Shown one piece after another: positions 12,908-41,533 of a stretch of DNA of 44,209 nucleotides. Location: positions 1 to 44,209 of the forward strand of contig JAFWEY010000013.1 in NCBI GenBank assembly GCA_017512675.1, in the 5' to 3' direction. The notes below the pieces were generated by a model, which was not told where the DNA came from, ran no database searches, and saw only the letters and a program-made list of their open reading frames with translations. The first letter of the stretch is position 1. The number at the start of each line of letters is the position of its first letter. This DNA comes from Clostridia bacterium. Lineage in GTDB: Bacteria > Bacillota > Clostridia > Christensenellales > Aristaeellaceae. The position numbers were made by a program, and so were the translations under genes.

Positions 12908-13924
12908 ATGCGCACACGCGGGCACGACACTTTGCAAAAACTCTATATCGAGCCGTCCTCAAAGTGCAACCTGAACTGCGCCATGTGTTTCAGGAACGGG
13001 TGGATCGGGGAACAGCAGGGATTCATGGAGGACGCTGTTTTCGATCGGATCCTCGCGTCGCTGCGGGCGATGCCGCCCGTTCGCGTGCTGTTCGGCGGCA
13101 TGGGCGAGCCGCTTCTTCATCCCCGCCTGCCGCAGTGGATCGCCGGCCTGCACGAAGCTTCCTGCCGGACGGAGCTGATCACCAACGGAACACTGCTCGA
13201 TCCGGCGCTGAGCCTGGAGCTGCTGCGCTGCGGGCTCGACAGGGTATGGGTTTCCATGGAAGGCTTTTCCCGGGAAGCCTGCGGGCGCGACCGCAGAGGA
13301 AGCACCCTGAACGGATTGACTGCCAATCTCGAGGGCTACAATCGGGCAAGGGAGCGCTGCGGAAGAGGGGAACTTGGCATAGCCTTCGTCATGCTGCCGG
13401 AGAACATGACGGAACTGAATCGCATCAACGCGTTTGCCGACCGGTACGGAGCGGACGCGCTCAACATCAGCCATGCGATCCCCGCAGGACCGGTCAGCAG
13501 GGAGGAGGCCCTGTTCCGGGACAGGTACCCCGTCGGGGAAATGGCGCGCTGGCGCAGCGATTTTTCGCCGCCAAAGGCCGATTATTGCCGCTTTGTATCG
13601 GAAGGCAACTGCTTTGTCCGCTGGGACGGGGACGTCGCGCCGTGCATGCAGCTGCTGCATGAGTGCAGCACTTACCTGTTCGAAGAGAAGCGGCGCGTTC
13701 ACCGGCGCAGCTTCGGCAGCATCCGGCACAGCAGCCTGCGGGAAATCTGGGAGTCCGAAGAATACTCGCTGTTCAGAGCGAGGGTAAAGGCATTCGATTT
13801 CCCCTCCTGCATTCATTGCGACGGCTGCGACGACCGCCTTTCCAACATGACCGACTGCGCCTTCAATCCGTTCCCGACCTGCGGCGCGTGCCTGTGGGCA
13901 CAGGGAATCATCTTCTGTCCGTAG
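12908..13924 (+). CDS. Radical SAM/SPASM protein resembling tungsten-cofactor (AOR) maturases
   Basis: A 338-residue protein from ATG 12908 (AAGGAG 12 bases upstream; ATG 12887 is in frame but has no ribosome site). The radical SAM cluster motif is CNLNCAMC (Cys20, Cys24, Cys27). The barrel has GGMGEPLLHP and ITNGTLL motifs. The C-terminal SPASM-type region is Cys-rich (CIHCDGCDD, then NPFPTCGACLWAQGIIFCP). The closing PTCGxCLWAQGxIxCP is what I recall from the radical SAM maturase of tungsten-containing aldehyde ferredoxin oxidoreductases (Cmo/W_rSAM_matur). No AOR is present in the window, so it would be an orphan or act in trans. The last 17 bases overlap the convergent response-regulator gene. 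Confidence 0.7.
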   Translation: MRTRGHDTLQKLYIEPSSKCNLNCAMCFRNGWIGEQQGFMEDAVFDRILASLRAMPPVRVLFGGMGEPLLHPRLPQWIAGLHEASCRTELITNGTLLDPALSLELLRCGLDRVWVSMEGFSREACGRDRRGSTLNGLTANLEGYNRARERCGRGELGIAFVMLPENMTELNRINAFADRYGADALNISHAIPAGPVSREEALFRDRYPVGEMARWRSDFSPPKADYCRFVSEGNCFVRWDGDVAPCMQLLHECSTYLFEEKRRVHRRSFGSIRHSSLREIWESEEYSLFRARVKAFDFPSCIHCDGCDDRLSNMTDCAFNPFPTCGACLWAQGIIFCP

Positions 13925-15548
13925 ACGGGCTCTCCCTCTCTTCCTCCTCGTCGTCGGAGCCGTCAAACCGCAGGTTGTGGCGCTCGCAGAATTCCCTCGG
14001 CGTCATACCGGTATAACGCTTGAAAATCCGGAAAAAGTAAGTATAGGCTTCGAATCCGCAGCGCGCGGCGACGGTCTTGACGTTCGGCTGGTCGATGGCG
14101 AACATCGCTTCGGCGCGCTCGATCCGGAAGCGGTTGATGTATTCGGAGATGCCCATGCCCACCTCGGCCTTGAAGCACCGGCTGAGATGTGACGGGCTGA
14201 CGTGGATTGTCTCCGCGACGACGTTCAGCGACAGGGTCGGCATCGCGTAGTTTCTGCGAATGACGTCCAGCGCTTCCTGGACAAATCCCTGGTACGCTTC
14301 GGCCCGGTTTGCGCGCGCTTGCCCGTACAATCCGGAAAACAATTCGGTGACGTATGTCTGCATCTCCGCCGGGGAGCAGTCCGTGTCCGGCAGCTCCCAA
14401 AAGCTCAGGCCGGCATTCGGAACCTCGCCTTTCAGATCGAGCAATACAAGGTACAGCGCCATCGTAAGCTGCGCGTAATGCAGCTGCCGGTAGCCCAGCC
14501 TCCTGCCGTCCTCATAGTAACGCGCGATACAGCGCCGCGTATCCTCGACGCCGGGGGCCTTCAGGCTGCGCCGCAATGCGCTGAGCGCGCGCGAGCGAAC
14601 CGCGCCGAAATCGATCGGGACAGGGTTTTCCTCCTCCGCTGCGGGACGGATGCCGGCGGTGCGCAGCATTTCCAGATACCCCTGATGAATATCCCGCACG
14701 TCCCGCACGATCGGCGACGCACAGCTCGAGCAATCCACATTGAAATACATTTTCATCATGCTTTCAACCTGGCTGATGTACATTCCCCGAATGCGCTCCA
14801 GCATGCGCGGATCCTTCAGTATGCTGCCGCCGAGAATCGTATAAAAGCAGGCGTCGCTTTCGCTGTGAAAAACCGCCCCGTCCGCCAGATGCTCCAGCAT
14901 ATTGCGCATCATTGAGCATATGGAGCGCAGGATGTATTTGAGCTTGCTCATCTCCTGATATTTTCTGCGAAAGCCCTCATAGTCCCGAAGACTCGTGCGC
15001 ACGATCAGCAGGTTTTCGGAAAGATGCGGAAGTCCCATCGAATCCCACAGCCGGTAATCCCCGTGATCCTGAACATACACTCCTTCCAGCAGCGCCGACA
15101 GGAACGCGCCCGTGCGCTGGTCATCCGAGCCGGAGCCGTTCGAATCCCGCGCGGGAACGGTTTCTCCGTTTTCGCCGCGCCGGCGGAGAAAATCCGACAG
15201 AATGCGCTGCATTTCCTGCCGGTTGAGACAGTGCTTCAGAACATAATCGCACGCGCCGAGCCGGAAGCTCTCCTTGACAAAATCGAAATCGTCATAATTG
15301 CTCAGCGCGACGCACTGCACGCCGGGGAAGTTCGACGCAATATAACCGATCAGTTCCGGCCCGTTCATTCCCGGCATGCACATATCGACAAACACGAGGT
15401 CTATCTGCCGCCTGTGCAGGATTTCAATCGCGGCGCTGCCGCTTCCGGCGCACGCGTCAAAGGAAAACCCGCTGGCCGCCCAGTCGAAGTTTCCCTCAAA
15501 TACGGAAGCAAAAAAGGCGTCGTCATCGACGATCATGATCTTATACAC
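13908..15548 (-). CDS. YesN-like response regulator, receiver plus AraC-type DNA-binding domain
   Basis: A 546-residue protein starting at GTG 15548 with AAGGAGG six bases upstream, inside the end of the kinase gene (8-bp overlap, so translationally coupled). Residues 1-120 form a receiver: acidic pocket DDD (8-10), phospho-acceptor Asp55 in VFVDMCMPGMNG. A long linker domain (about 130-430) follows, then an AraC/HTH_18 domain near the C terminus (MPTLSLNVVAETIHVSPSHLSRCFKAEVG... YTGMTPREF). It is the output partner of the neighbouring YesM-like kinase. Such pairs usually control sugar ABC importers, and a sugar-binding lipoprotein gene lies divergently next to the kinase. The gene end overlaps the convergent radical SAM gene by 17 bp. 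Confidence 0.9.
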   Translation of the reverse strand: MYKIMIVDDDAFFASVFEGNFDWAASGFSFDACAGSGSAAIEILHRRQIDLVFVDMCMPGMNGPELIGYIASNFPGVQCVALSNYDDFDFVKESFRLGACDYVLKHCLNRQEMQRILSDFLRRRGENGETVPARDSNGSGSDDQRTGAFLSALLEGVYVQDHGDYRLWDSMGLPHLSENLLIVRTSLRDYEGFRRKYQEMSKLKYILRSICSMMRNMLEHLADGAVFHSESDACFYTILGGSILKDPRMLERIRGMYISQVESMMKMYFNVDCSSCASPIVRDVRDIHQGYLEMLRTAGIRPAAEEENPVPIDFGAVRSRALSALRRSLKAPGVEDTRRCIARYYEDGRRLGYRQLHYAQLTMALYLVLLDLKGEVPNAGLSFWELPDTDCSPAEMQTYVTELFSGLYGQARANRAEAYQGFVQEALDVIRRNYAMPTLSLNVVAETIHVSPSHLSRCFKAEVGMGISEYINRFRIERAEAMFAIDQPNVKTVAARCGFEAYTYFFRIFKRYTGMTPREFCERHNLRFDGSDDEEEERESPSTDRR

Positions 15549-26774: not shown

Positions 26775-29700
26775 TTACTTCTTCTTTTTCTTCCTGAAGG
26801 CAACGCCCGCCGCGGCGAGCAGCAGCACGACGACCGCGGCGATCGCCGCCGATCCGCTCCTGCCGAATACACTGCCGGCTTCACTCGGCGCTTCCTGCAC
26901 CGGCTCAGCGCTTTCCCCGGCGTCTTCCAGTTCGATTTCGGTTCCGCTCTCCGCGTCGGCCGGCACGTTCTCCACAGAGCCCTCCTCCAGGCTGAGGCCC
27001 TCGCTGAGATCCAGCTCGTTTTCCGGCGCCCCTTCGCCGCTTTCGGCCGGTTCCTCAACCGGTTCGGTTCCGGCTTCTTCCGTCACGGCATTCTCGTCGA
27101 ACAGCCACAGCGCCGTCGCCGTCACGTCCCCGCTGACCGTAATCGCATCTCCCGCTTTCGCGACAAAGGTTCCATCGTTCCCGCTGATTTCCCAGCTGTC
27201 GAACGTGGCGCCTTCGAGCGAATAACCGGCGTCCGGCAGCACGTATAAGCTCCCGCCCGCTGCCTGTACGGGTTCCATCTCCCCGTCCGCGCCGCCGCCG
27301 TCGAACGTGACGGTGTACGCCGCCGCGGGTTCGACGGGCTTCTCTTCGGCGGTCTCCTCCTCTGCCTGCTGTTCCGTCTCCGCTTCATGCGCGTCTTCCC
27401 TGGGCTGCTCGGACACCGGCGGCTCTTCCGTTTCGGCTGCCGTCTCCGCCTCAGGCTCCGCGCTCTCCGCTTCTTCGGGCTGCTCGAATACCGGCGGCTC
27501 TTCCGTTTCGGCTGCCGTCTCCGCTTCGGGCTCCGCGCTCTCCGCTTCTTCGCTTTGTTCTGCCTCAGGTGTGTTCCCGCTCTCCTCGGTTTCTGCTTCG
27601 GCTTCTTCCTCCGCCGGCACTGCTACCGCCGTCTGCCATTGCGCGGTCACCACCGTATCCCCTGCCACCGTGATGGCCTCGCCGGGCTGCAGAATTTCCC
27701 CGCCGACCAGCCAGCCCGCGAATTCCATGCCTTCCGGTGCGGTGAACCCGTTCGCCGGCAGCGAATAGCTGCCATTCTCATCCGGTTCTGCCGCATCCAT
27801 CCCGCCTTCGCCGCCGTTCGCGTCGAAGGCGATGAAAACAGGCGCCGCTGCTTTCTGCCACAGCGCGGATACGGTGGTATCGGAGGCGACAGAGATCACA
27901 TCATTCGGCTGTGCGATCACAGCTTCGGCGTTGCCGACGGTCACTGACCATCCTGAAAAGACCGAATCCTCCGCGGTGAAGCCGCATGCGGGCAGCATAT
28001 AGGCGCTTCCGGAAGCGAGGGTAACGGAAGCCATGCCTCCATCCGCATTCTCAAGGCCGGATGCAAAGGTGACGGTCGCGGGTACGCCCAGGAAGGCCTC
28101 GCCGTCTGTATTGACGCCTACGACATAGTCCGGTTTATCGCTGGAGAAGCCCGCGGCCGCGTCTGTGTCGGAAAGGCCGGAAGCGAACACGCCATTGCTG
28201 CCGCCCGCTTTGGTAACGCCGATTTTCGCTCCATCGGTCAGGGGACCGGTCACGCTGATCTTTGACGAGATGACGCTTCCCGAATCGTCGTACAGATAGA
28301 CGTTATACCCCTTGTTTACATCGTTCCCGGTGAGCGAATTGTCTTTCACCACCGGGCGGCCGGAGACGTTCAGGGTGCCGCCATTGCAGATTCCGCCGCC
28401 CTGCTTCTTGGAGACGTTTCCCGTTATCGTGCCGCCGTACAGATTCAGCGTCGCGCTGGTGCCGTCCCGGGAGCCGATATAGATCGCGCCGCCGTTGCTG
28501 TCGGCCATATTCCTTGTGATCCTGCCGCTGTTGATCGTGATCGTTCCCGCGTGCGCCGAGATTGCGCCGCCGCTCTTGACGGACGAGTTCATACTGAGCT
28601 CGCCGCCGTTCATATTCAGCGTACCGCTGTTATAGATCGCGCCGCCGTCCTTGGTGGTCAAATTGTCCTTTATCGTTACATTCGTCAGATTCAGCGTGCC
28701 GTTGTTGATGATCGCGCCGCCGTTTTCGATATTCATTCCGCCCGTGACGGTGCCGCGGCCGATCAATTCCAGCGTGCCTTCGTTGGTGAACACGTTTCCG
28801 TCGACCAGTACCTCATTGAGATTGCGGTCGATGGTGTGATTCTGCAATTCGATCACGATATGCTTGCCCGCAGGAATCACGATCGGGACATCATCGGCTG
28901 CGGCGGTAACGTCGCGTGACAATTGGATCACAGAGGGCTCTCCGTCGGGCTTTGCGCTGATCTCCTCCTGAAGCGCTTTCCAGTGATAAATTTTCTTGCT
29001 TTCGGTGTAGGTCTCGCCGTCAACGGCCACGCTCGCGGTATATTCGGTTTCTGTTGCGGTCTCAATTGCCTCTGTATCGTCGTCTGTGCGGGTGCCTTCC
29101 GCGCCGCCGCTGAAACTGCAGGTGCCGCCGCAGTCAAACACAGCGGCCGCGCTGCTGTAATCCGCAGACCAGGTCCAGACCGGCTCCCTGTGCCTGTCGG
29201 TGGGCACAAACTGACATTCGTAGTATGCGGCGATGCCGCAAAGGGCGCTGCCGTGCGGGCCGCGGAATACGACGCCGGTGCCCGGATCGAAGGATTCCTC
29301 CGGCCCGGATTCATATATGTAATGCGAGTAGGAGATCGACCCGGTCGACGTGGAGGCAAAGGTCTCCAGAGCGGTGCAGCCCTTGAACGCGTCGGTGCCG
29401 ATATCTTTCAGGCCGCTGCCGATCGTTACGGTCTTCAGCCCGGTGCACCCCTCAAACGCGCTTCTGTAGATGCCGGTAAGGCTGTCGCCTGCCGTCACGC
29501 TTGTCAGAGCGGTATTGTCCTTGAATACCTCAGAATCGATCGATACGACCGCTCTGCCGACCATACCGCTTTCGACATAGCCCTCGGGAATCGTATCGGG
29601 AATGACGATATCGGCGTCTGTGCCGTTGTATTCGTATATCGTGCACAGATTCGCGTATCCCGGGATCGGGTTGCCCCGGAAGCGGAAATACGGAACGAGA

Positions 29701-31601
29701 AGCTCTGACGCTGCCGTGCGCTCAAGCGCGCCTCCGTTTTCGACAAAGTCCCAGCCGCAGATCGGGCAGGAATAGTATTCCACATTGCCGTTGATGTAGC
29801 TGCCGGCAACGGGGTCATTGGCCGGCGGAACAGCCGCATGATGCGTCGTAGTCGCCACATCGTGCGCGTGGGCCTTCCTCAGCGTTTTGCCGGCCATGGC
29901 GGCGAGATCGGTTTCGAAAAGAGTGCCGGTATACTCCCGTTCATAGTCGGTCAGGGCCTGCCCGTCGGCGATTTTGGCGATTCCGTCATCGAAAGCAATG
30001 CTGCCCAGGAAGATACGGTCGTCGTCATCGGCACAGCTGAGCGTGAGCAGCCCTTCCTCGATCGTCAGGCTCGCTATGTTTGTGACGCCGGAGGTGATTT
30101 CCAGCGAACCGCAGCTCACTTCCCCGGCAACCGTCAGCGAACCGTTCCGGACGCTGAGCGCACTGCCGGCGCTGTTGATCGTATTGACCTCGTATTGCGC
30201 GCCGCAAACGTTGAGTTCACTGCCGCTGAAGGAATCGGAAACGAGTTTGCCGGTGCCGTTTGTCTGCCCGTAAATGCTCATCTTGCCGCCGCTGATCCCG
30301 CTCTGTACGGTGATCGTCGCGCCGTCAGCGACGATGATGCGCACGTCGCCGTTCAATTCGATATTGCGCGGGAACGATTTGTCGTGATAATAGTTGACGT
30401 TCTCTTTCACCACATACCAGGCAGGCTCATCGCCGTCGCTGCCGAGGGGAGTGTAGTAATAAAAACCGCTGCTCGTCAGCCGGTAGTTCTCCTGTTCAAA
30501 TCCGGTGAGAACCCTTGCCTCGACCGTAAGGGGGCTGCCGTTCTCATCGATACAGCTGACGGACTCGGTCGGGCTCGAGGGGGCAAACCGGGTGAAGATC
30601 CCCGTGCGCTCGGCGGGCATCGCAAAGGTATAGGAATCGTTCAGGATGTCGCTTATATGATTGTGCTCATGATAGCTGCTGTCTTCCAAATAGAACATAT
30701 CGACGCACCCGTTCTCCGCCGGAGAGAAGGTGACGGTGACCGTATCGCCGGTCCTGACGCCGCTGATGGGGAAAGAGCCGTCCGACGATACGGAAACGGG
30801 TTCACCGCCGTTGACAGCGACCGTATAGCTGCCGTATCCCGCTCCGGAGAGTACGGCGCGCAGCTCCTGCTCCACCGCCTCAAACTCTGCGGCAACGGCA
30901 ACCGCGGAGGCCGGCATGGTGAATTCGAAATCCTCGGATACTTCAACGGCCTGCCCTTCCGAATCGGTGACCGTCAGCGATACCAGACGGCAGCCGGCCT
31001 CAGGCGTTACCGTCAGGGCGACGGTCTCCCCCATATCCGCTGTTTCGGGAGCTGTGACCGTACCCGGTCCGGTTTGGCTGACTTCGACGGCATAGATGTT
31101 GCTCAGGAATACCGCTTTCACGACGGCCGAGGAGCCGGGCATGAGGAACGATCCGTTTGAAACAGTGACCGGATTGCCGCTGTGGTCGGTGACCGTAACG
31201 GAGTCCAGACGGCAGCGCGCCTTCGGGGTGGCGGTAAAGGTGATCCCGTCGCCCTCGTGCGCCATCGGCAGGCTGGTCGTGACGGTTCCCAGGGTTTCAT
31301 CACAGTCGGTAAAGACGGGATACACAGGGGCTGCGTTCTCTTTCTGCTTCACAAAGATATTATAATTGTAGTTGGAGGCCAATCTTCCGTTTTCGTCCAG
31401 ACTTACCCCCTGGATCTTCATGCTGCTGTCAAGATGGATGCTGCCGGCATAATGATCGCCGTCCCCGGCGCCGATCGGAGGCCAGACAAGGTCTTGATGT
31501 GATGCATTGTAACCGCCCGTTATGTTCAGGGAACTGCCGTAAAAAGAGATGTCGTTCATGGTCCCGGAGCCGCTCGCGCCGATCCCGGGAGCGCCGGGCA
31601 C
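26775..31601 (-). CDS. Giant repeat-rich surface protein, main part (gene frameshifted near 31825)
   Basis: This frame holds 1608 residues from its first Met and is open further upstream to about 31850, where it continues the N-terminal frame 31736-32170; the intact protein would have about 1800 residues. Domains in order: glycine/asparagine beta-helix segments; Flg_new_2/InlB-like repeats (for example GDGITFTATPKARCRLDSVTV); a BspA-like LRR block (SAFEGCTGLKTVTIGSGLKDIG); a right-handed beta-helix with repeated GGAIxNxGTLNxxG units; two more InlB B-like repeats; a Glu/Pro-rich spacer with a 25-residue tandem duplication; a last InlB-like repeat. It ends in a membrane helix plus RKKKKK. There is no LPXTG, so anchoring is probably by this helix. 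Likely adhesin or matrix-binding protein. Confidence 0.8.
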   Translation of the reverse strand: MPGAPGIGASGSGTMNDISFYGSSLNITGGYNASHQDLVWPPIGAGDGDHYAGSIHLDSSMKIQGVSLDENGRLASNYNYNIFVKQKENAAPVYPVFTDCDETLGTVTTSLPMAHEGDGITFTATPKARCRLDSVTVTDHSGNPVTVSNGSFLMPGSSAVVKAVFLSNIYAVEVSQTGPGTVTAPETADMGETVALTVTPEAGCRLVSLTVTDSEGQAVEVSEDFEFTMPASAVAVAAEFEAVEQELRAVLSGAGYGSYTVAVNGGEPVSVSSDGSFPISGVRTGDTVTVTFSPAENGCVDMFYLEDSSYHEHNHISDILNDSYTFAMPAERTGIFTRFAPSSPTESVSCIDENGSPLTVEARVLTGFEQENYRLTSSGFYYYTPLGSDGDEPAWYVVKENVNYYHDKSFPRNIELNGDVRIIVADGATITVQSGISGGKMSIYGQTNGTGKLVSDSFSGSELNVCGAQYEVNTINSAGSALSVRNGSLTVAGEVSCGSLEITSGVTNIASLTIEEGLLTLSCADDDDRIFLGSIAFDDGIAKIADGQALTDYEREYTGTLFETDLAAMAGKTLRKAHAHDVATTTHHAAVPPANDPVAGSYINGNVEYYSCPICGWDFVENGGALERTAASELLVPYFRFRGNPIPGYANLCTIYEYNGTDADIVIPDTIPEGYVESGMVGRAVVSIDSEVFKDNTALTSVTAGDSLTGIYRSAFEGCTGLKTVTIGSGLKDIGTDAFKGCTALETFASTSTGSISYSHYIYESGPEESFDPGTGVVFRGPHGSALCGIAAYYECQFVPTDRHREPVWTWSADYSSAAAVFDCGGTCSFSGGAEGTRTDDDTEAIETATETEYTASVAVDGETYTESKKIYHWKALQEEISAKPDGEPSVIQLSRDVTAAADDVPIVIPAGKHIVIELQNHTIDRNLNEVLVDGNVFTNEGTLELIGRGTVTGGMNIENGGAIINNGTLNLTNVTIKDNLTTKDGGAIYNSGTLNMNGGELSMNSSVKSGGAISAHAGTITINSGRITRNMADSNGGAIYIGSRDGTSATLNLYGGTITGNVSKKQGGGICNGGTLNVSGRPVVKDNSLTGNDVNKGYNVYLYDDSGSVISSKISVTGPLTDGAKIGVTKAGGSNGVFASGLSDTDAAAGFSSDKPDYVVGVNTDGEAFLGVPATVTFASGLENADGGMASVTLASGSAYMLPACGFTAEDSVFSGWSVTVGNAEAVIAQPNDVISVASDTTVSALWQKAAAPVFIAFDANGGEGGMDAAEPDENGSYSLPANGFTAPEGMEFAGWLVGGEILQPGEAITVAGDTVVTAQWQTAVAVPAEEEAEAETEESGNTPEAEQSEEAESAEPEAETAAETEEPPVFEQPEEAESAEPEAETAAETEEPPVSEQPREDAHEAETEQQAEEETAEEKPVEPAAAYTVTFDGGGADGEMEPVQAAGGSLYVLPDAGYSLEGATFDSWEISGNDGTFVAKAGDAITVSGDVTATALWLFDENAVTEEAGTEPVEEPAESGEGAPENELDLSEGLSLEEGSVENVPADAESGTEIELEDAGESAEPVQEAPSEAGSVFGRSGSAAIAAVVVLLLAAAGVAFRKKKKK
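27405..27554 (-). repeat. 75-bp tandem repeat coding for a Glu/Pro-rich 25-residue unit
   Basis: Two near-identical 75-bp units (period set by ACCGGC at 27415 and 27490) encode AESAEPEAETAAETEEPP plus a short variable end. They form a stalk-like low-complexity spacer; such units vary easily in copy number. Confidence 0.75.
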
Positions 31602-33683: not shown

Positions 33684-33928
33684 TCAATCGTAGCGGGTGT
33701 TCACCTGCATGCTCGCAGGGGTGTACTGCATAAATTCCACTTCATTCCCCTCCGGATCCTGCACCCAGGCAGTATAGGATCCGCACGGCGCGATTTCCGG
33801 ATCGCATATGTAGGGCTTCCGGATGAAGTAACGGTTGGCGGAAGGCCCTTTTGTCAGAAGAACGCCCTTTGCCTCCAGGGCTTTCGCGTGGGCGAACATG
33901 TCGGGCACCGTGATCGCGATGTGGCTGC
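33684..33928 (-). pseudogene. C-terminal half of a VOC (glyoxalase-like) protein, fragment
   Basis: The last 80 residues of this frame (SHIAITVPDMFAHAKALEAKGV; later AWVQDPEGNEVEFMQY) are the second beta-alpha-beta-beta-beta half of a vicinal-oxygen-chelate protein with the metal-ligand Glu in EVEFMQY. The N-terminal half is missing. Upstream of about 33926 the DNA instead encodes a sugar-binding protein in another frame, so the gene is cut at a junction. Not expected to be functional. Confidence 0.7.
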
Positions 33929-34572
33929 AGCCAGTTCTCCATGCAGGCCTGGCCTTTTTCAGTGTCCCAATCGCAGGGCTGGGAAGCGAGCACGGTGATG
34001 CGATCGCCGTAGTTCTCCTGCAGCAGCGCCACGCAGCTGTCAACGCGGACCAGCTGGGCGGTCTGGGCGGCGGAGCCGTACAGCAAGCCGATGTTCAGCT
34101 TCAGATCGGGATTGGCGTCGAGCTGCGCAGCCAGATAGCTGAACATGTTCTCGCCCATCACGTTCTCGTCGCCGATCTTCAGGTTCAGAATGCCATCGAT
34201 GTTCGCGCCGCGAACTTCCATGACCTTCACGCCCTGCTCCAGGCAGGTCTGAACCGCGGGAAAGATGCCCACCGGATCGACGCCCTGAATCACGATCGCC
34301 TTCGCGCCCATGGCCAGCATGGTGTCGATATCGGCAAGCTGACGCTGCATGTCGCTCTCAGCCGTCGCGGTGGTGGTTTCGATTCTCGGCGTATTGCCGG
34401 CTTCGTTCCAGGCTTCCGCGGCATCGCAGAACGCCTTCATCTGGCGCAGACTGTTCTCATCCGAGTTGTGATTCGCGTAAGCGAACAGCCAGGTCTCACC
34501 CTCCGCCATCGCTCCGCACAGCAGCGCCGCCGCCATTGTCAGAGCCAGAACCAGACATACGATCCTCTTCAT
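33742..34572 (-). CDS. 5'-part of a sugar-binding protein gene fused out of frame to a VOC fragment
   Basis: ATG 34572 with AAGGAGG seven bases upstream starts a genuine secreted Peripla_BP_4-type protein: signal peptide cleaved near AMA-EG, then WLFAYANHNSDENSLRQMKAFCDAAEAW and AIVIQGVDPVGIFPAVQTCLEQGVKVMEVRG. Homology runs to MENWL (about residue 215, base 33928). The remaining 61 residues are VOC-gene DNA read in the wrong frame. A whole protein would have over 300 residues, so the C-terminal lobe is lost. It probably gives no functional binding protein. The neighbours (truncated LacI regulator, VOC fragment) suggest a collapsed sugar-uptake locus or a misassembly. Confidence 0.7.
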   Translation of the reverse strand: MKRIVCLVLALTMAAALLCGAMAEGETWLFAYANHNSDENSLRQMKAFCDAAEAWNEAGNTPRIETTTATAESDMQRQLADIDTMLAMGAKAIVIQGVDPVGIFPAVQTCLEQGVKVMEVRGANIDGILNLKIGDENVMGENMFSYLAAQLDANPDLKLNIGLLYGSAAQTAQLVRVDSCVALLQENYGDRITVLASQPCDWDTEKGQACMENWLQPHRDHGARHVRPRESPGGKGRSSDKRAFRQPLLHPEALHMRSGNRAVRILYCLGAGSGGE

Positions 34573-34640
34573 GTTCTTTCCTCCTTATTTTTACGGCCGC
34601 TTACAGGCCGCTGGATACCACCCGAATTTATTACGGTTCG

Positions 34641-35471
34641 GTGCTTCGGGGCAAAGCGACACGGCAGTTGTATGTGTACTGTCCGGAGCTGGTCAATCCC
34701 TTCTTCTTACACGTGTACTTCGGAATGGAAGAGTACGCGCTCGGCCATGATTATCAGATCTTCCTGACCCGCACCTTTGACCGCGGCATGATCTGTCAGG
34801 GCCGGTTTGACGGGTTTCTGTTTCCGGTCTACAATTCTTCCGAAGTGATGGACGGAATCCATTTCCTGCGCGATATGAACCTTCCGTTCGTCATATCGGA
34901 TTTCCAGGATATCCTCCGGAACGATATTCCGACGGTGAGCGTAAACGTGGAGGGCGCCGGCTGGAAAGCGGCCGACCACCTGCTCGAGCTGGGGCACGAC
35001 GATATCCTGTTCGCGACCGCGACGATCGACCCCAAATGGGTCGGCATACAGCGCTGCTGCGCCAGCCGCGGCCGGCGCGCCTCGCTGTTTCTTTTCAGCA
35101 ACGGGGAAGGCAAAATCCGCAACTACTTCAATCTGGGCGCCCAGTGCGCGCAGGACATCGCCCGCATGGCAAAGGTTCCCACCGCGATTATCGCGGCGAA
35201 CGACGAAATCGCCGCCGGTCTGATCAACGGCCTCACGCGGCTCGGCTACCACGTTCCAAACGACATTTCCGTCATCGGGTTCGACGACGCCTATATCGCC
35301 GCCTATTCCAATCCGTCGCTGACGACCATTCACTATCCCAAGACGAGAATCGGAATGGAGATGGCCAAAATGCTGATCGGCACCATCACCGGCGCGCCGG
35401 TCGATACCTATGTACAGTTCGAAACGGAATTCGTATTGCGCGAGAGCACCGCTTCTCCCCGCAACCCGTAA
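34641..35471 (+). CDS. LacI-family regulator lacking its DNA-binding domain (truncated)
   Basis: Homology starts abruptly at the hinge (VLRGKATRQLYVYCPELVNPFF) and covers the periplasmic-binding-protein-like effector domain to the end (TAIIAANDEIAAGLINGLTRLGYHVPNDISVIGFDDAYIA). The N-terminal helix-turn-helix of about 55 residues is absent. The frame is open to 34536, but that part is antisense to the binding-protein signal peptide. GTG 34641 is only a nominal start, with no ribosome site. The break lies between about 34586 and 34607, beside the ribosome site of the divergent fragment. Without HTH it cannot repress in the normal way; most likely a remnant. Confidence 0.7.
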   Translation: MLRGKATRQLYVYCPELVNPFFLHVYFGMEEYALGHDYQIFLTRTFDRGMICQGRFDGFLFPVYNSSEVMDGIHFLRDMNLPFVISDFQDILRNDIPTVSVNVEGAGWKAADHLLELGHDDILFATATIDPKWVGIQRCCASRGRRASLFLFSNGEGKIRNYFNLGAQCAQDIARMAKVPTAIIAANDEIAAGLINGLTRLGYHVPNDISVIGFDDAYIAAYSNPSLTTIHYPKTRIGMEMAKMLIGTITGAPVDTYVQFETEFVLRESTASPRNP

Positions 35472-35785: not shown

Positions 35786-36058
35786 ATGGAAAACATTGAA
35801 AGCACGCTGGAGCTCAGCAACGAGGAATTGGAACTGATTTCAGGCGGCAAGAAGCAGGTATTCGTGAAGACAAGCGAAGGCGCCACGGTGCGCATTCGTC
35901 CCGGCCGTGACCAGCAGGTCATCGGCAGGCCGAAGCCCGGAACCCTGCTGTGCTACCTGGGCGAGACGAAAAAGACCAGCGACGGCCTGAGCTGGGCCAA
36001 GGTCAACTTCGAAGGATTCGAAGGCTGGGTCTCTTCGAAATTCTCCAAGTTCGCCTGA
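35786..36058 (+). CDS. Double-glycine-leader SH3-domain protein 1 (exported cargo)
   Basis: A 90-residue protein with AAAGGAG seven bases ahead. Residues 1-21 are a typical double-glycine leader (LELSNEELELISGG) of the sort cut by C39 peptidases. The remaining 69 residues are not a short peptide but a full bacterial SH3 domain (SH3_3 pattern: ATVRIRPGRDQQVIGRPKPGTLLCYLGE, then SWAKVNFEGFEGWVSSKFSKF). It has no cysteine in the lanthionine sense and no modification enzyme nearby. SH3b domains bind cell-wall peptides or proteins, so the mature product may target a cell wall (its own or a competitor's). First gene of the operon, directly behind the promoter. Export by the C39-ABC protein downstream is inferred from leader and linkage. 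Confidence 0.8.
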   Translation: MENIESTLELSNEELELISGGKKQVFVKTSEGATVRIRPGRDQQVIGRPKPGTLLCYLGETKKTSDGLSWAKVNFEGFEGWVSSKFSKFA

Positions 36059-36178
36059 CAGAGGCAAGCATTCTCTGGCGGCGAAGGGAACGAAGATCCA
36101 AAGCGCGCGTAACGGGGTTCTCAGCCCGGAAGCGCATATGCGGATCGCAGCATTTCAATGCGCAAAGGAGATGTGAAT

Positions 36179-36463
36179 ATGGATATCAACGAGAATCTGG
36201 AGAACGCGATTGAACTGAACGAAGAAGAACTCGTGGAAGTCGCGGGTGGAAAATCCGCGGGGCAGAAAGTCGAAGCGACGGGCAGCGCGAACGTCCGGCA
36301 AAAGCCGAACCTGAAAGGCGCCATTCTGGGCACTGTGAGCAAAGGCACGAAGCTGAACTTCCGCGGCATTGCAAGCTATGATTCCCGCGGAGTGGCATGG
36401 TACAAGGTCGATTTCAAGGGACAAATCGGCTGGATTTCCTCCAAGTATTCGAAGATCGTTTAA
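36179..36463 (+). CDS. Double-glycine-leader SH3-domain protein 2 (exported cargo)
   Basis: A 94-residue paralogue of the preceding protein. ATG 36179 is chosen (AAAGGAG eight bases upstream); an in-frame ATG 21 bases earlier lies ahead of that ribosome site. The leader is IELNEEELVEVAGG with the cut expected after Gly24. The mature part is an SH3 domain (SANVRQKPNLKGAILGTVSKGTKLNF; AWYKVDFKGQIGWISSKYSKI). The two cargo proteins share fold and leader but differ in much of the surface, as in two-component bacteriocins or a toxin/partner pair. A strong terminator follows 12 bp later, so both are probably made in large excess over the export proteins. Confidence 0.8.
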   Translation: MDINENLENAIELNEEELVEVAGGKSAGQKVEATGSANVRQKPNLKGAILGTVSKGTKLNFRGIASYDSRGVAWYKVDFKGQIGWISSKYSKIV

Positions 36464-36474
36464 TCTGAATGCTG

Positions 36475-36517
36475 AAAACCGCTCTGTCTCGGCACTAAAC
36501 CGAAACAGAGCGGTTTT
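36475..36517 (+). terminator. Intra-operon terminator between cargo and export genes
   Basis: AAAACCGCTCTGT (36475-36487) pairs perfectly with ACAGAGCGGTTTT (36505-36517), with CGG/CCG pairing inside; 13 bp, ending in four T. No promoter is evident between it and 36601, so export genes likely depend on readthrough. Confidence 0.85.
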
Positions 36518-36600
36518 GCGCGGATACGGAATCCGGAATCAACGGAATGCGCGGCATCTTTCAGAAAACCAGGCGCTTCCGAAAAACTGGAGAGGTTTTG

Positions 36601-37032
36601 ATGCAGGAGAGACTGTTCAGAAAAAAGAGCATCGAAAGGATATCGTCCCCCGAGCAGCTGAACGATTATATGCAGGTGACCAATCCGGGCATCTGGATGG
36701 TTCTTGCCGCCGTGATCATTCTGCTGGCGGGCCTGATCGTTTCATCCGCTCTGGCGACGCTCCAATCCACAATTCCCGCGCAGGGCGAAGTGCTCACAGA
36801 CGGCAGAAGCATTTCCGTGGAGCTCCCGATTTCCCGGAAAGACGCCATCTCCCCCGGCATGCCGGTGAAGGCGGCAGGCTTGTCCGCGCACGTCGAATAC
36901 ATCTATCAGAACAACGACGTGCTGAACGTAATCGTTCTGCCGGACGACGGGGATGCCTCTCTGCCCGCAGGAATCTACGATGTGGAGATCATTGAAGAAA
37001 CCATCGCTCCCATCAGCTTTCTGCTGAACTGA
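36601..37032 (+). CDS. Miniature NHLM-type HlyD-like secretion protein
   Basis: A 143-residue protein; ATG 36601 follows GGAGAGG. The N terminus (RLFRKKSIERISSPEQLNDYMQVTNPGIWM) and one membrane helix (about 38-60, VLAAVIILLAGLIVSSAL) match the start of NHLM bacteriocin-system HlyD proteins. A short beta-barrel-like segment follows (IPAQGEVLTDGRSISVELPI). The family usually has 250-450 residues with lipoyl and coiled-coil hairpin domains; these are absent, although the gene ends cleanly 15 bp before the exporter. It is probably a membrane-anchored accessory of the exporter, reduced because there is no outer membrane to span. Family assignment rests on the N-terminal third. Confidence 0.65.
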   Translation: MQERLFRKKSIERISSPEQLNDYMQVTNPGIWMVLAAVIILLAGLIVSSALATLQSTIPAQGEVLTDGRSISVELPISRKDAISPGMPVKAAGLSAHVEYIYQNNDVLNVIVLPDDGDASLPAGIYDVEIIEETIAPISFLLN

Positions 37033-37047
37033 GGAAGGGAGTGAGCC

Positions 37048-39237
37048 GTGTTGCGCAACAGCCGGAATGCCGTAAAATCGCCCGTCAGGAAGGGCGTGGC
37101 CAAAGTGCCCGTGGTCATGCAGATGGAAGCGCTGGAATGCGGCGCCGCCTGCCTTGCCATGGTGATGGCGTATTACAGGAAATGGGTGCCGCTTGAACAG
37201 GTTCGGCTGGACTGCGGCGTTTCCCGCGACGGTTCCAACGCCAGAAACGTTCTGCGGGCGGCAAAGAATTACGGGTTTGAAACCCACGGCTACCGGATGG
37301 AGCTGGAAGCCCTGAAGAAACAGGCCGCCTTTCCCTGCATCATTCACTGGGAATTCGATCATTTTGTCGTCCTGGACGGTTTTCAGGGCGGAAAGGCCGT
37401 AATCAACGACCCCGCCCGGGGCATCGTCAAGGTTCCGATGCAGCAGTTCGATCAGTCCTTTACCGGGATTTGCCTGACCTTTCAGCCCGGGGAGGATTTT
37501 GTTCCCTCCGGCCGGCGGAAAAGCACGCTGGAGTTCGCCCGCAGGCGCCTGGCGGGAACCGGGCCGGCAGTGGTCTTCGTGGCGCTCACCACGATCATCG
37601 CCTATCTGTTCGGTGTCATCAATCCGGTCATGTCCCGGATTTTCTACGACCGTCTTCTGACCGGCCGCAATCCGGAGTGGCTGCAGCCGTTCATTCTGGT
37701 CATGTCGGGCCTGTGCGTTCTGGAATTGACCGTGGACTGGGCGCAGACGGTTTACAGCCTCCGAATCAACGGAAAAATGTCCGTCATGGGCAGTACATCC
37801 TACATGTGGAAGGTACTGCGCCTGCCGATGGAATTCTTCTCCCAGCGCATGACGGGAGACATTCTGCAGCGGCAGTACACAAACGCGTCCATCGCGGAAA
37901 CGCTGGTGGAAACGGTGGCTCCCCTTGCGCTCAACACCGTCATGATGCTCTTCTATCTGGTGCTGATGCTGCGCTACAGCCCGGTGATGACGATGATCGG
38001 CCTGGTTTCCATTCTGTTGAATCTGATCATCGCGCGCATTCTGTCCGAAAAGCGCGTGAACCTGATGCGCGTGCAGGTGCGGGACGAAGGCAAGCTGGCT
38101 TCGGCGACCCTGGCGGGCATCAGCCTGACGGAAACCATCAAGGCCTCCGGGGCGGAAAACGGCTTTTTCCGCAAATGGTCCGGGTATCAGGCCTCCGTCA
38201 ACGCACAGAACACCCGCTTCGCAAAAATGAACGCCTGCCTGGGAATCATCCCGTCCTTCATCGAGGCCGCTGCCAATTACATGGTTTTGTTCTTTGGCGT
38301 GCGCTTCGCGATGGACGGAAACTTCACGCTGGGCATGATCACCGTTTTCCAGGGCTTCCTGACTTCGTTCATGAGCCCGGCCCAGACCCTGATCGGCGCC
38401 GGGCAGACGATCCAGGAGATGCGCACGCAAATGGAGCGGGTCGAGGACGTAATGCAGTACCCTTCCGATCCGTACGTGCGCGAAAGCGATCCCGAAGAGA
38501 ACGCGGATTACGCGAAGCTGAAAGGCCGGGTAGAACTGAAGGACGTGACCTTCGGCTATTCCCGGCTGTCCGCGCCGGTGGTACAGGACTTCTCGATGCG
38601 GCTGGAACCCGGAAGCAAGATCGCCATCGTCGGCAGCAGCGGCTGCGGAAAATCCACCATCTCAAAGCTGATTTCCGGTCTGTATCAGCCCTGGAGCGGA
38701 GAGATCCTGTTTGACGGGAAGCCGATCGGGAAGATCCCCCGGGAGGTGTTCACCAGTTCGGTGGTCGTCGTGGATCAGGACATCATCCTGTTCGAGGACA
38801 CCATCGCCAACAACATCCGCATGTGGGATCCCTCCATCGAGGATTTCGAAGTGATTCTCGCCGCCCGGGACGCCCAGCTGCACGACGACATCATGCGCCG
38901 TCCCGGCGGCTACCAGGCCCGCCTCACCGAAAACGGAAAGGACCTGTCCGGCGGCCAGCGGCAGCGGCTGGAGATCGCGCGGGTGCTGGCACAGGATCCG
39001 TCGGTCATCATTCTGGACGAAGCGACCAGCGCGCTCGACGCCAAGACGGAGTACGACGTGGTGCGCGCGATACGGGACCGCGGAATTACCTGCATCGTAA
39101 TCGCGCACCGGCTGTCCACGATCAGGGACTGCGACGAAATCATCGTGCTGGAAAAGGGCCGGGTTGCGGAGCGCGGCACGCACGACGAATTGTTCGCGAA
39201 GGGCGGGGTCTACGCCGAACTCGTAACCAGCGAATGA
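37048..39237 (+). CDS. NHLM-type ABC exporter with N-terminal C39 leader peptidase
   Basis: A 729-residue protein starting at GTG 37048 (AAGGGAG six bases upstream; TTG 37051 is possible). Residues 15-150 are a C39 cysteine peptidase: catalytic Cys31 in MEALECGAACLAMV, His in the FDHFVVLDGF strand, Asp in INDPARG. This domain cuts double-glycine leaders. A six-helix exporter domain (about 160-440) and an ABC ATPase follow: Walker A GSSGCGKST, signature LSGGQRQRLEIARV, Walker B VIILDEATSALD. It matches the NHLM_micro_ABC1 group (peptidase/permease/ATPase). It should process and export the two SH3 proteins. It works in the cytoplasmic membrane, probably with the mini-HlyD and the second ABC protein. 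Confidence 0.92.
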   Translation: MLRNSRNAVKSPVRKGVAKVPVVMQMEALECGAACLAMVMAYYRKWVPLEQVRLDCGVSRDGSNARNVLRAAKNYGFETHGYRMELEALKKQAAFPCIIHWEFDHFVVLDGFQGGKAVINDPARGIVKVPMQQFDQSFTGICLTFQPGEDFVPSGRRKSTLEFARRRLAGTGPAVVFVALTTIIAYLFGVINPVMSRIFYDRLLTGRNPEWLQPFILVMSGLCVLELTVDWAQTVYSLRINGKMSVMGSTSYMWKVLRLPMEFFSQRMTGDILQRQYTNASIAETLVETVAPLALNTVMMLFYLVLMLRYSPVMTMIGLVSILLNLIIARILSEKRVNLMRVQVRDEGKLASATLAGISLTETIKASGAENGFFRKWSGYQASVNAQNTRFAKMNACLGIIPSFIEAAANYMVLFFGVRFAMDGNFTLGMITVFQGFLTSFMSPAQTLIGAGQTIQEMRTQMERVEDVMQYPSDPYVRESDPEENADYAKLKGRVELKDVTFGYSRLSAPVVQDFSMRLEPGSKIAIVGSSGCGKSTISKLISGLYQPWSGEILFDGKPIGKIPREVFTSSVVVVDQDIILFEDTIANNIRMWDPSIEDFEVILAARDAQLHDDIMRRPGGYQARLTENGKDLSGGQRQRLEIARVLAQDPSVIILDEATSALDAKTEYDVVRAIRDRGITCIVIAHRLSTIRDCDEIIVLEKGRVAERGTHDELFAKGGVYAELVTSE

Positions 39238-39343
39238 TTCCCGCCGCCGGCGGCTGAAGCGTTCCCGCGAATGCCGGGTCCGCCGGGAAATCCGTCGAAC
39301 GCGCCGCCTGTCACGGCCTGTTCGCGTTGAAAGGGGTAACCGA

Positions 39344-39661
39344 ATGGGATGGGTTAACGACCAGATCCGGGAGCGCATGGAGAGCGACCAGGAGATTTTT
39401 GAAGAGTCTTTTGTGCGCGTGGCAGGCGCCGTGCTTGGAAGCCATGTCGCGGAGCGGCTGGAAGACGAGCGTCAGGTCGCAAAGGCCGCGCTGTCCGAGA
39501 TTCTCAAATACTACCGGTTCAAGGCGGTGGAAGTTCCGGATTCCGTCAGTGACATAAACGAACAGATCGAATACGTACTGCGGCCCACCGGCCTGATGAC
39601 CCGCAACGTGCGGCTGGAAGAGGGCTGGTACAAAAACGCGTTCGGTCCCATGCTGGGCTAA
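39344..39661 (+). CDS. N-terminal part of the second NHLM ABC exporter, ended by an in-frame TAA
   Basis: A 105-residue frame, ATG 39344 with AAAGGGG upstream. It matches the beginning of NHLM_micro_ABC2 proteins (FVRVAGAVLGSHV; later RPTGLMTRNVRLEEGWYKNAFGPMLG). The stop TAA (39659-39661) is in the same frame as the following gene, and the family sequence continues across it (GPMLG, stop, LNDGTAVALLPGRISGY). A single-base change from a Tyr codon (TAC/TAT) would create this stop. It is either a true nonsense mutation, a site of readthrough, or a sequence error. Confidence 0.75.
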   Translation: MGWVNDQIRERMESDQEIFEESFVRVAGAVLGSHVAERLEDERQVAKAALSEILKYYRFKAVEVPDSVSDINEQIEYVLRPTGLMTRNVRLEEGWYKNAFGPMLG

Positions 39662-41533
39662 TTGAACGACGGAACCGCCGTGGCGCTGCTTCCGGGGCGG
39701 ATCAGCGGATACTGGTTCAAGGATCCGAACACCGGAAAACGGACGCGGGTCGGCAGAAAGACCGCGCAGATGTTCGATGAAGACGCCATGTGCTTCTATC
39801 GCCCGCTGCCGATGAAAAAGCTCGGCATTCCGGATCTGCTGATCTTCATGCAGAAATGCATCACCCGCGGGGACCTGATCCTGATCGCCCTGGCGACCCT
39901 GGCGGTGAACCTGGTTTGCATGATCGAGCCCAAACTGTATGCGGGCATCACGGGGCCGGTGCTGAAGAGCAGAAACGTTTCCCTTTTGATCGGCATGGCG
40001 ATATTCCTTCTGAGCTCCAATCTCGCCAGTCAGATGATCGAGGCCGTGCGGAGCCTGCTGATGGATCGCATTTCCGTCAAAACCTCCCTAGCAGTGGAGG
40101 CTTCCGTCATGATGCGGATTCTGTCGCTGCCGGTGAGCTTTTTCCGAAAGTATTCCTCCGGCGAGCTTTCAAACCGGGCGAACTCCGTCGATTCCCTGTG
40201 TACGATGCTGCTGGACAACATCCTTTCCACGGGGCTTACCTCGCTGATGTCGCTTCTGTTCATCACGCAGATTTTTCAGTTCGCGCCTACGCTGGTGTGG
40301 CCTTCCATCGCGATCATCCTGGCAACGGTGCTGCTGAGCCTGTTCGCTTCGATGATGCAGATCGGGATCTCGCGAAAAGAAATGCAGATTTCCGCGCGGG
40401 AATCGGGCATGAGCTACGCGATGGTCGGCGGAATTCAGAAGATCCGTCTGGCCGGCGCCGAAAAGCGCGCCTTCGCCCGCTGGGCAAAGCTGTACGCGGA
40501 AAACACCGAGCTTCAGTACAATCCGCCGGCGTTCCTGAAACTGAACGACGTGATTCTGAAGGGCATTTCCCTCGTGGGCACCATCGTACTGTACACGCTC
40601 GCCGTGAAAACCGGGGTGGAGCCCAGCAGCTATTTCGGCTTCACCGCCGCGTACGGACATCTGCTGAGCGCGTTTTCCTCGCTGGCCGGAATCGCCATCT
40701 CCGTGGCTTCGATTTCTCCGGTGCTGGAAATGGCGGAACCGATCCTGAAGACGGAGCCCGAAGTCACCGCCGAAAAGGAAGTCGTCACCGACGTGACGGG
40801 AAACATCGAAATCAACCACGTTTCCTTCCGGTACGGCAAAAACACGCCCTGGGTTCTGCAGGATCTGTCGCTGAAAATCCTCAGCGGCGAATACGTCGCC
40901 ATCGTCGGGCGAACCGGCTGCGGCAAATCCACGCTGGTTCGGCTTCTGCTGGGATTTGAAAAACCGCAGCAGGGCGCGATCTTCTACGACGGACGAGATC
41001 TGAACGGGATCGATCCCCGTTCGCTGCGCAAAAAGATCGGCGCGGTGACCCAGAACGGGCAGCTGTTCCAAAGCGACATATTTTCCAACATCACGATTTC
41101 CGCGCCGCATCTGACCCTAGAAGAGGCCTGGGAAGCAGCAGAGATCGCCGGAATCGCCCAGGACATCCGGGAGATGCCGATGGGCATGCAAACTCTGATC
41201 TCCGAAGGGCAGGGCGGCATTTCCGGCGGCCAGAAGCAGCGGCTTATGATCGCGCGGGCCATCGCGCCCAAGCCGAAAATCCTGATTTTCGACGAGGCCA
41301 CCAGCGCGCTGGACAACAAAACCCAGAAGCAGGTATCCGAAGCGCTGGACAAGCTCCGCTGCACCCGCATCGTGATTGCGCACCGCCTGTCCACCATCCG
41401 CAACTGCGACCGCATCCTGGTGATGGATCACGGTGCGATCATCGAAGAGGGCAATTACGAAGAACTGATCGAAAAGAAGGGCGTATTCGCGGATCTGGTC
41501 GCCAGGCAGCGCCTGGACAGAAACCCGGATTGA
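39662..41533 (+). CDS. Second NHLM ABC exporter (permease/ATPase), main part
   Basis: A 623-residue frame that opens with TTG directly after the TAA of the preceding part, in the same phase. No ribosome site is visible, so expression would need readthrough or stop-coupled reinitiation at TAATTG. It lacks a peptidase domain. The N-terminal segment (LLPGRISGYWFKDPNTGKRTRV) belongs to the NHLM_micro_ABC2 pre-domain, then a six-helix exporter domain, then an ABC ATPase: Walker A GRTGCGKST, signature ISGGQKQRLMIARA, Walker B ILIFDEATSALD. In NHLM clusters this protein accompanies the C39 exporter, perhaps as heterodimer partner. The joined protein would have 729 residues. A strong terminator follows. 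Confidence 0.88.
   Translation: MNDGTAVALLPGRISGYWFKDPNTGKRTRVGRKTAQMFDEDAMCFYRPLPMKKLGIPDLLIFMQKCITRGDLILIALATLAVNLVCMIEPKLYAGITGPVLKSRNVSLLIGMAIFLLSSNLASQMIEAVRSLLMDRISVKTSLAVEASVMMRILSLPVSFFRKYSSGELSNRANSVDSLCTMLLDNILSTGLTSLMSLLFITQIFQFAPTLVWPSIAIILATVLLSLFASMMQIGISRKEMQISARESGMSYAMVGGIQKIRLAGAEKRAFARWAKLYAENTELQYNPPAFLKLNDVILKGISLVGTIVLYTLAVKTGVEPSSYFGFTAAYGHLLSAFSSLAGIAISVASISPVLEMAEPILKTEPEVTAEKEVVTDVTGNIEINHVSFRYGKNTPWVLQDLSLKILSGEYVAIVGRTGCGKSTLVRLLLGFEKPQQGAIFYDGRDLNGIDPRSLRKKIGAVTQNGQLFQSDIFSNITISAPHLTLEEAWEAAEIAGIAQDIREMPMGMQTLISEGQGGISGGQKQRLMIARAIAPKPKILIFDEATSALDNKTQKQVSEALDKLRCTRIVIAHRLSTIRNCDRILVMDHGAIIEEGNYEELIEKKGVFADLVARQRLDRNPD

What the first reader, a model, noticed from the sequence alone, without database searches (positions are those of the whole stretch)
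35786..41533. NHLM/C39 export operon whose cargo is two double-glycine-leader SH3-domain proteins
Seen: two small genes, each with a classical double-glycine leader (ends ELISGG and EVAGG) joined to a complete bacterial SH3 domain, followed by mini-HlyD, C39-ABC and second ABC genes. Known: NHLM clusters normally export modified peptides or class II bacteriocins; SH3b domains bind cell walls. Inferred: a C39 exporter here secretes small folded wall-binding proteins as a pair, with no modification enzyme, immunity gene or lanthipeptide synthase next to it. This combination is not one I recognise as described. It could be a wall-targeting bacteriocin pair, a wall-remodelling signal or an adhesion module.
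Basis: partly seen in the sequence, partly recalled or inferred. Interest (0 to 1): 0.87.

Follow-up and report, generated by a model that had tools for sequence, protein, structure and literature searches.

The report
Peptide-type exporter carrying wall-binding SH3 pairs
A gut Clostridia genome encodes two small SH3-domain proteins that carry the double-glycine tag of an exporter encoded beside them, and relatives repeat the pattern with SH3 or LysM domains, so these exporters likely ship out small proteins predicted to bind bacterial cell walls, not only antimicrobial peptides.

Summary
Window 35786-36058 (A) and 36179-36463 (B) each encode a canonical double-glycine (GG) leader plus one SH3_3 domain. 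A mini-HlyD, a C39 peptidase-ABC (TIGR03796, above cut-off) and a second ABC follow; the second ABC is interrupted by an in-frame TAA. It is a family: 92 of 120 listed homologues are short GG-SH3 proteins; 12 of 12 inferred same-contig pairs are one A plus one B. In the best-sampled related genus, GG-SH3 was found in 13 of 28 genomes, all 13 with a TIGR03796 exporter (6 of the other 15 have one). Most copies lie away from the exporter, so export in trans is likely. None of nine exporter-less genomes showed a GG-SH3 leader; their SH3 relatives start with Sec-like signals. The AlphaFold model has a disordered leader and a confident SH3 barrel. The same leader type also precedes single LysM domains (38 of 308 family genomes, 33 with TIGR03796). 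Two unrelated wall-binding folds behind one leader favour non-catalytic wall binding over a bacteriocin. Cleavage, secretion and binding are untested. Exporter and SH3 domain are known; I found no description of this cargo class in the papers searched.

The parts
35786..36058 (+). SH3 cargo A, 90 aa: 21-aa double-glycine leader (35786-35848) + SH3_3 domain
   Evidence: SH3_3 34.5 bits, residues 32-86; leader profile match E 3e-7 (A's leader is one of the 20 in the profile)
36179..36463 (+). SH3 cargo B, 94 aa: 24-aa double-glycine leader (36179-36250) + SH3_3 domain
   Evidence: SH3_3 54.3 bits, residues 36-91; AlphaFold2 model mature part pLDDT 96-98; leader profile match E 7.5e-10 (B's leader is one of the 20 in the profile)
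36475..36517 (+). strong RNA hairpin between cargo and exporter genes; likely a terminator that lets cargo be made in excess
   Evidence: -33 kcal/mol for the 67-nt stretch, z -6.3; function inferred
36601..37032 (+). truncated HlyD-type adaptor, 143 aa, one apparent membrane segment (start ATG 36601 preferred over 36547)
   Evidence: TIGR03794, 24.4 bits; similar size in relatives
37048..39237 (+). C39 peptidase-ABC exporter (NHLM_micro_ABC1, TIGR03796), 729 aa
   Evidence: 923.6 bits vs cut-off 853.3; Peptidase_C39 122.1 bits; C39 domain 101 of 138 residues identical to LahT150 (PDB 6mpz)
39344..39661 (+). N-terminal piece of the second ABC protein (NHLM_micro_ABC2), ends at in-frame TAA
   Evidence: 19.5 bits to TIGR03797 positions 7-65
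39662..41533 (+). C-terminal piece of the second ABC protein, same frame, permease + ATPase
   Evidence: TIGR03797 688.3 bits, cut-off 709.4, positions 70-685; one-piece homologues of 728 aa or more at 17 of 20 loci

Best explanation
The two genes encode small SH3-domain proteins with double-glycine leaders, which the neighbouring C39 exporter likely cuts off while exporting the 69- and 70-residue SH3 domains, predicted to bind the cell wall. Shown by calls: leader and SH3 domain in both genes, their recurrence as A+B pairs and as dispersed copies, co-occurrence with the exporter, and a predicted SH3 barrel that starts just after GG. Inferred from the studied relatives LahT150 and PCAT1: the C39 domain recognises the leader, cleaves after GG, and the ABC part moves the ~7.6 kDa domain across the membrane; a domain of that size could fit the exporter cavity, but whether it passes folded is unknown. 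Inferred: further copies elsewhere in the genome are exported in trans by the same machine. Inferred: the products carry no catalytic domain and act by occupying wall sites (they are strongly basic, pI about 10), most likely on the producer's own envelope, where they decorate the wall or steer Sec-exported surface proteins and wall hydrolases encoded beside some copies. In this particular genome the second ABC gene is split by a stop codon, so export here may be impaired.
For: SH3_3 and exporter models. 92 of 120 listed homologues are under 115 aa with a GG leader, 89 of 92 fitting a strict -12/-8/-7/-4 pattern. Leader-only profile in this genome at E up to 10: 3 matches, all GG-SH3. Genus g16, 28 genomes: GG-SH3 in 13 at the search threshold, all 13 with TIGR03796, versus 6 of the other 15 (Fisher p 0.0008; relatedness not corrected; one of those 6, G266, has a divergent GG-SH3). 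Leader-only profile in all nine exporter-less g16 genomes: no GG-SH3; three of them (G256, G257, G276) have a GG leader with only 8 or 19 residues after it. In eight of those nine I fetched the best SH3 hits: those complete at the N-terminus begin with Sec-like signals. Exporter 75-79% identical in 16 of 28 g16 genomes. Model of B: leader 1-24 pLDDT under 50, barrel 96-98; among the solved matches are wall-associated SH3 domains, e.g. 2krs rmsd 1.2 over 60 residues, 4krt endolysin 1.6 over 62, 8b2f muramidase wall-binding domain 2.0 over 61. A+B pairing 12 of 12. Convergence: GG-LysM matches in 38 of 308 genomes, 33 with TIGR03796 versus 107 of 270 others; one GG-LysM gene lies 36 bp from an exporter ABC2 gene. 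Wall-related neighbours of orphan GG-SH3: Big_2 surface proteins 37-180 bp downstream at 3 loci, one with a GH25 muramidase domain. C39 domain 73% identical to LahT150, which removes GG leaders from diverse peptides (PMC6363468, abstract and passages).
Confidence: 0.6

Rival explanations
1. A two-component bacteriocin: A and B are released together and bind and disturb the walls of competing bacteria, like a class IIb pair but with folded wall-binding domains.
For: A+B pairing, GG leaders and C39 exporter typical of bacteriocins, basic products, weak match of B to Bacteriocin_IIc (19.3 bits, below cut-off 27.1), strong hairpin after the cargo genes.
Against: Mature parts conserved, not hypervariable (mean identity 0.54). 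Some copies lie beside the producer's own surface proteins.
Confidence: 0.2
2. The mature SH3 proteins are secreted signals: they are sensed at the wall by neighbours or self, and regulate population behaviour.
For: GG peptides of C39 exporters include signals in other Firmicutes (PMC7018657, abstract in the search listing). Several copies per genome.
Against: No receptor or two-component gene was recognised directly beside the pair; I scanned 15 other window ORFs against Pfam or NCBIfam, not every ORF. The one response-regulator-like AraC-type ORF seen (13908-15548) is about 20 kb away. A whole folded wall-binding domain is an unusual signal.
Confidence: 0.1
3. The leader is not used for export: the SH3 proteins stay inside or leave otherwise, and their place beside an exporter in this window is coincidence or a decayed locus.
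For: Second ABC gene interrupted; most GG-SH3 genes read in relatives are away from the exporter.
Against: The 13 leader residues up to GG are the best conserved part (mean identity 0.63 against 0.34 upstream and 0.54 for the mature part); GG-SH3 tracks exporter presence; the same kind of leader sits on LysM proteins with the same co-occurrence.
Confidence: 0.1

Closest known systems
NHLM/NHLP export cluster (TIGR03794, TIGR03796, TIGR03797; Haft et al. 2010, PMC2887384, passages read)
   Same: C39-ABC above the TIGR03796 cut-off, second ABC of the TIGR03797 family, HlyD-like adaptor; cargo with Gly-Gly leaders, partly encoded away from the exporter
   Different: Cargo described there has long leaders (GG at average position 83 and 70) and Cys/Ser/Thr-rich cores linked to modifying enzymes; the word SH3 does not occur in the text held. 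Here the leader is 21-24 residues and the cargo a whole SH3 domain; the adaptor is a third of the model length
LahT of Lachnospiraceae C6A11 (LahT150 structure 6mpz; PMC6363468, abstract and passages read)
   Same: C39 domain 101 of 138 residues identical; tolerant double-Gly protease
   Different: Its native substrates are Nif11-type lanthipeptide precursors, not folded domains
PCAT1/CtA of Clostridium thermocellum (PMC6959990, passages read)
   Same: C39 exporter with a 90-residue substrate, 24-residue leader plus 66-residue cargo, the same size as A and B
   Different: More distant: window C39 domain scores 62.6 bits to the PCAT1 chains and 236 to LahT150; the CtA cargo was flexible in the complex
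Sec-exported tandem SH3 proteins of related Clostridia
   Same: SH3 repeats 36-51% identical to B over the matched part (28 of 120 listed hits)
   Different: Sec-like signal, two or more domains, found also in genomes without the exporter
Class IIb two-peptide bacteriocins (recalled)
   Same: Two adjacent GG-leader products, C39 exporter
   Different: Folded conserved SH3 domains, no recognised immunity gene, dispersed copies

Membership tests
NHLM_micro_ABC1 exporter (TIGR03796) | score above curated cut-off over the whole protein | tested here: met
   923.6 vs 853.3 bits, positions 1-709 of 710
NHLM_micro_ABC2 (TIGR03797) | score above curated cut-off | tested here: not met
   C-terminal piece 688.3 vs 709.4 bits; the gene is split by a stop, N-terminal piece 19.5 bits
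NHLM_micro_HlyD (TIGR03794) | score above curated cut-off over 421 positions | tested here: not met
   24.4 vs 156.2 bits, positions 1-58 only
NHLP/Nif11 precursor families of the NHLM cluster | long nitrile-hydratase- or Nif11-related leader | tested here: not met
   no NHLP or Nif11 model among the matches to A or B at E up to 0.1; leaders of 21 and 24 residues
C39/PCAT double-glycine substrates | leader with hydrophobic -12, -7, -4 and GG at -2/-1 | tested here: met
   sequence of A and B; 89 of 92 relatives fit
C39/PCAT double-glycine substrates | cleaved after GG and exported | not testable with these tools
   needs protein chemistry
Bacterial SH3 domain (Pfam SH3_3) | score above gathering cut-off | tested here: met
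   34.5 and 54.3 vs 27 bits; model of B matches solved SH3 domains
Wall-binding SH3b | binds peptidoglycan or wall polymer | not testable with these tools
   only similarity to wall-associated SH3 domains
Class IIb two-peptide bacteriocin | two short unmodified GG-leader peptides | tested here: inconclusive
   pair present but products are 69-70-residue SH3 domains; Bacteriocin_IIc 19.3 bits for B, below cut-off
Class IIb two-peptide bacteriocin | dedicated immunity gene beside the pair | tested here: inconclusive
   none recognised among the ORFs listed beside the pair; no recurrent immunity-like neighbour family seen, membrane segments not computed

The most novel reading that the evidence does not exclude
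Gut Clostridia run a secretion route used in part for naked wall-binding domains: C39/NHLM exporters take single SH3b or LysM domains that have swapped the Sec signal for a short double-glycine leader, made as A+B pairs and from dispersed copies, and release them as a modular coat that targets separately Sec-exported surface proteins and muramidases, a split-lysin-like arrangement in which binder and enzyme leave by different doors.
Probability: 0.3. Interest if true: 0.85.

Novelty: new variant of a known kind. Interest (0 to 1): 0.72.

Why it matters
C39 exporters are mined mostly for short antimicrobial or modified peptides. A recurrent class of GG-leader cargo that is a complete wall-binding domain, SH3b in this genome and a sister genus and LysM in other genera of the same family, would widen what these exporters are for, would explain exporters without peptide genes beside them, and makes a mechanistic point testable: whether a C39 exporter can move a folded ~7.6 kDa domain. 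It also offers a short portable leader for exporting small domains.

Tried and rejected
The terminator scan did not list the hairpin after B; folding showed it. The structure of a third GG cargo family beside exporters (HDLKNF type, 5 sequences) was poor (pLDDT 50.5), so it is not called SH3. A test counting that family as GG cargo was dropped, because it had been sought only beside exporters; the later whole-genus search found close copies only in G258, G263, G266, G273 and G275. Ten paper searches for SH3 or LysM with double-glycine leaders or C39/NHLM exporters listed nothing describing this cargo; passages of PMC13289728, PMC2887384, PMC3482391 and PMC11322243 were checked. Only open-licence papers are held, and no supplements were read, so this is not proof of absence. 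The A/B classes were defined by motifs chosen after seeing the sequences (A 38, B 43, unclassed 11 of 92), and 'same contig' was inferred from identical longest-contig length (12 coincidences; 1.3 expected on average, at most 7 in 2000 trials). One search read the SH3 hits of eight of nine exporter-less genomes (G269 not fetched); three of those hits are cut by contig ends at their start (L219, L221, L224). The family-wide GG-SH3 list was capped and mixes Sec-type proteins, so GG-SH3 outside this genome and genus g16 was recognised only in G006 (L217) and may be undercounted. TIGR03796 searches scored three candidates per genome, so copy numbers are lower bounds.
Full report
Observation. Two small genes, A (35786-36058) and B (36179-36463), each start behind an AAAGGAG motif and encode a classical double-glycine leader followed by one SH3 domain. 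Pfam gives SH3_3 at 34.5 and 54.3 bits against a cut-off of 27. Leader residues follow the C39 rule: A has L-12, E-8, L-7, I-4, GG; B has L-12, E-8, L-7, V-4, GG. Downstream lie a 143-residue HlyD-like adaptor, a C39-ABC protein above the TIGR03796 cut-off (923.6 vs 853.3 bits) and a second ABC protein of the TIGR03797 family. The second ABC gene is interrupted by an in-frame TAA at 39659-39661; at 17 of 20 exporter loci of relatives it is one ORF of 728 aa or more. I cannot tell a real mutation from an assembly error. A 13-base-pair stem with an inner stem lies between B and the adaptor (36475-36517; z -6.3), so the cargo pair probably has its own short transcript.

A family, not a one-off. 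Searching with B alone gave 4 proteins, itself included; a profile of five GG-SH3 proteins gave 168, of which 120 are listed. Of those 120, 92 are under 115 aa with a GG leader and 28 are longer without it; 27 of the 28 are 157-165 aa and start with what looks by eye like a Sec signal, and one (P0045) is cut at its start. In the 92, the 13 residues up to GG are more alike (mean pairwise identity 0.63) than the residues upstream (0.34) or the mature part (0.54). Mature parts are 66-73 residues with median pI about 10; Sec-type relatives are also mostly basic (median 10.0, wide spread), so charge does not set them apart. Twelve pairs of clusters share the same longest-contig length, and in all 12 one is A type and one B type (caveats under Tried and rejected).

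This genome. The MAG has 206 contigs and is 83% complete. Besides the window pair it holds another complete A-type gene at the end of contig C28 and B-type 3' ends at the ends of C9, C112 and C204, which suggests at least two A and four B copies. A leader-only profile finds three matches at E up to 10, all GG-SH3. The profile was built from such leaders, these three included, and the MAG is incomplete, so other cargo may exist.

Exporter and leader go together. In the 308 genomes of the family, 140 have a TIGR03796 match at E 1e-200, 135 above cut-off. In the best-sampled genus (g16, 28 genomes) full-length GG-SH3 was found in 13 genomes and TIGR03796 in 19; all 13 are among the 19 (Fisher p 0.0008). 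A 14th, G266, has a divergent GG-SH3 and also an exporter. With the stricter criterion of an exporter at least 75% identical to the window's, GG-SH3 is in 12 of 16 genomes with it and 1 of 12 without (p 0.0006; G260 is the exception). These tests ignore relatedness, and exporters of other genera reach 75% too. The nine exporter-less genomes were all searched with the leader profile at E up to 0.1: none gave a GG-SH3; G256, G257 and G276 gave a GG leader with only 8, 19 and 19 residues after it. In eight of the nine I fetched the best SH3 hits: no GG leader, and those complete at the start begin with Sec-like signals.

Adjacent or in trans. Among the 16 genomes with the close exporter, GG-SH3 is beside it in G252, G258 and G266 and very likely in G268, where cargo plus HlyD end one contig and the C39 gene starts another; in G263, G273 and G275 only a third GG cargo family of unknown fold was recognised beside it; in the other 9 no GG cargo was recognised beside it although all nine have GG-SH3 genes elsewhere. 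Around 38 GG-SH3 genes at 31 loci of 14 genomes, recurring neighbours include Big_2 surface proteins 37-180 bp downstream at three loci, one of them with a GH25 muramidase domain, and a roughly 220-residue Sec-type protein in five genomes.

A second wall-binding fold uses the same door. At a related exporter in G195 a GG-leader protein 36 bp from ABC2 is a single LysM domain (Pfam 45.7 bits, cut-off 20.9). Its relatives match in 38 of 308 genomes and 10 genera, none in this window's genome. At the 20 loci fetched (20 genomes, 8 genera) 23 of 24 matching ORFs have the GG leader; the other is an unrelated frame. Matches outside those 20 loci were not checked for the leader, and some run across a stop codon. 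Of the 38 genomes 33 have TIGR03796, against 107 of the other 270 (p 3e-8; relatedness not corrected). Other cargo of these exporters is a zinc-ribbon-like protein (25.4 bits, just below its model's cut-off of 27) and Cys-rich peptides, so the exporter is a general GG machine with wall-binding domains as one cargo class.

Mechanism. The C39 domain is 101 of 138 residues identical to LahT150, a protease shown to remove diverse double-Gly leaders with little regard to what follows (PMC6363468). PCAT1 handles a 24+66-residue substrate, is thought to select it through the leader only, and has a cavity estimated at 15,000 cubic angstroms against about 9,000 for its cargo (PMC6959990). A and B (21+69 and 24+70) are of that size. 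Export is therefore likely; folded passage is open. For function I commit to non-catalytic wall binding, most likely on the producer's own envelope, because two unrelated wall-binding folds share the leader, the mature domains are conserved, and wall-related genes sit next to some copies.

Novelty. Every part is known; I did not find the cargo class in the papers searched (calls listed under Tried and rejected). I file it as a new variant of a known kind.

Noticed in passing
39344-41533: Second ABC gene carries an in-frame TAA at 39659-39661 followed directly by TTG; intact relatives exist.
   Followed up: partly
L271:438-2876 (+) and L272:4236-6464 (-), genome G274: The same kind of GG leader starts two proteins of 812 and 742 aa without any Pfam match above cut-off; in L272 the order is large GG protein, GG-SH3, Big_2+GH25 protein, all on one strand.
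   Followed up: partly
L185:9618-9932, L189:8947-9240, L196:10639-10983, L198:6931-7332, L273:8489-8890: A third, very conserved GG-leader cargo family (HDLKNFVTA...) beside close relatives of the exporter; fold unresolved.
   Followed up: partly
L278:615-875, L282:291-551, L283:5081-5341; also L323 and L327: GG-leader small protein with a zinc-ribbon-like domain beside the same exporter clade in other genera, nearly identical in three genomes; other GG proteins with paired CxxC motifs in G275 and G266.
   Followed up: partly
L246 (G257), L247 (G276), L320 (G256): GG-leader-like ORFs with only 8 or 19 residues after GG in genomes without a TIGR03796 hit; G257 and G276 copies share the tail FS(R/W)EDIL(E/G)FFLTGAQGVRD.
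   Followed up: no
window 33684-34572 (-): A sugar-binding-protein-like ORF (Peripla_BP_4) seems to run into a different reading frame with a glyoxalase-like end; possible deletion or chimeric assembly.
   Followed up: no
window 34536-35471 (+): LacI-family-like protein with only the ligand-binding domain recognised, just upstream of the cargo genes; no DNA-binding domain matched.
   Followed up: no
window 26775-31601 (-): 1608-residue repeat protein with InlB B-like (Flg_new_2) and BspA leucine-rich repeats.
   Followed up: no
window 12887-13924 (+): Radical SAM protein resembling the tungsten-cofactor oxidoreductase maturase (257 bits, cut-off 380).
   Followed up: no
contig ends of C112 and C204 in G000 (L215, L214): Near-identical B-type 3' ends followed by the same strong inverted repeat at two contig ends: recent duplications that probably break the assembly.
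   Followed up: partly
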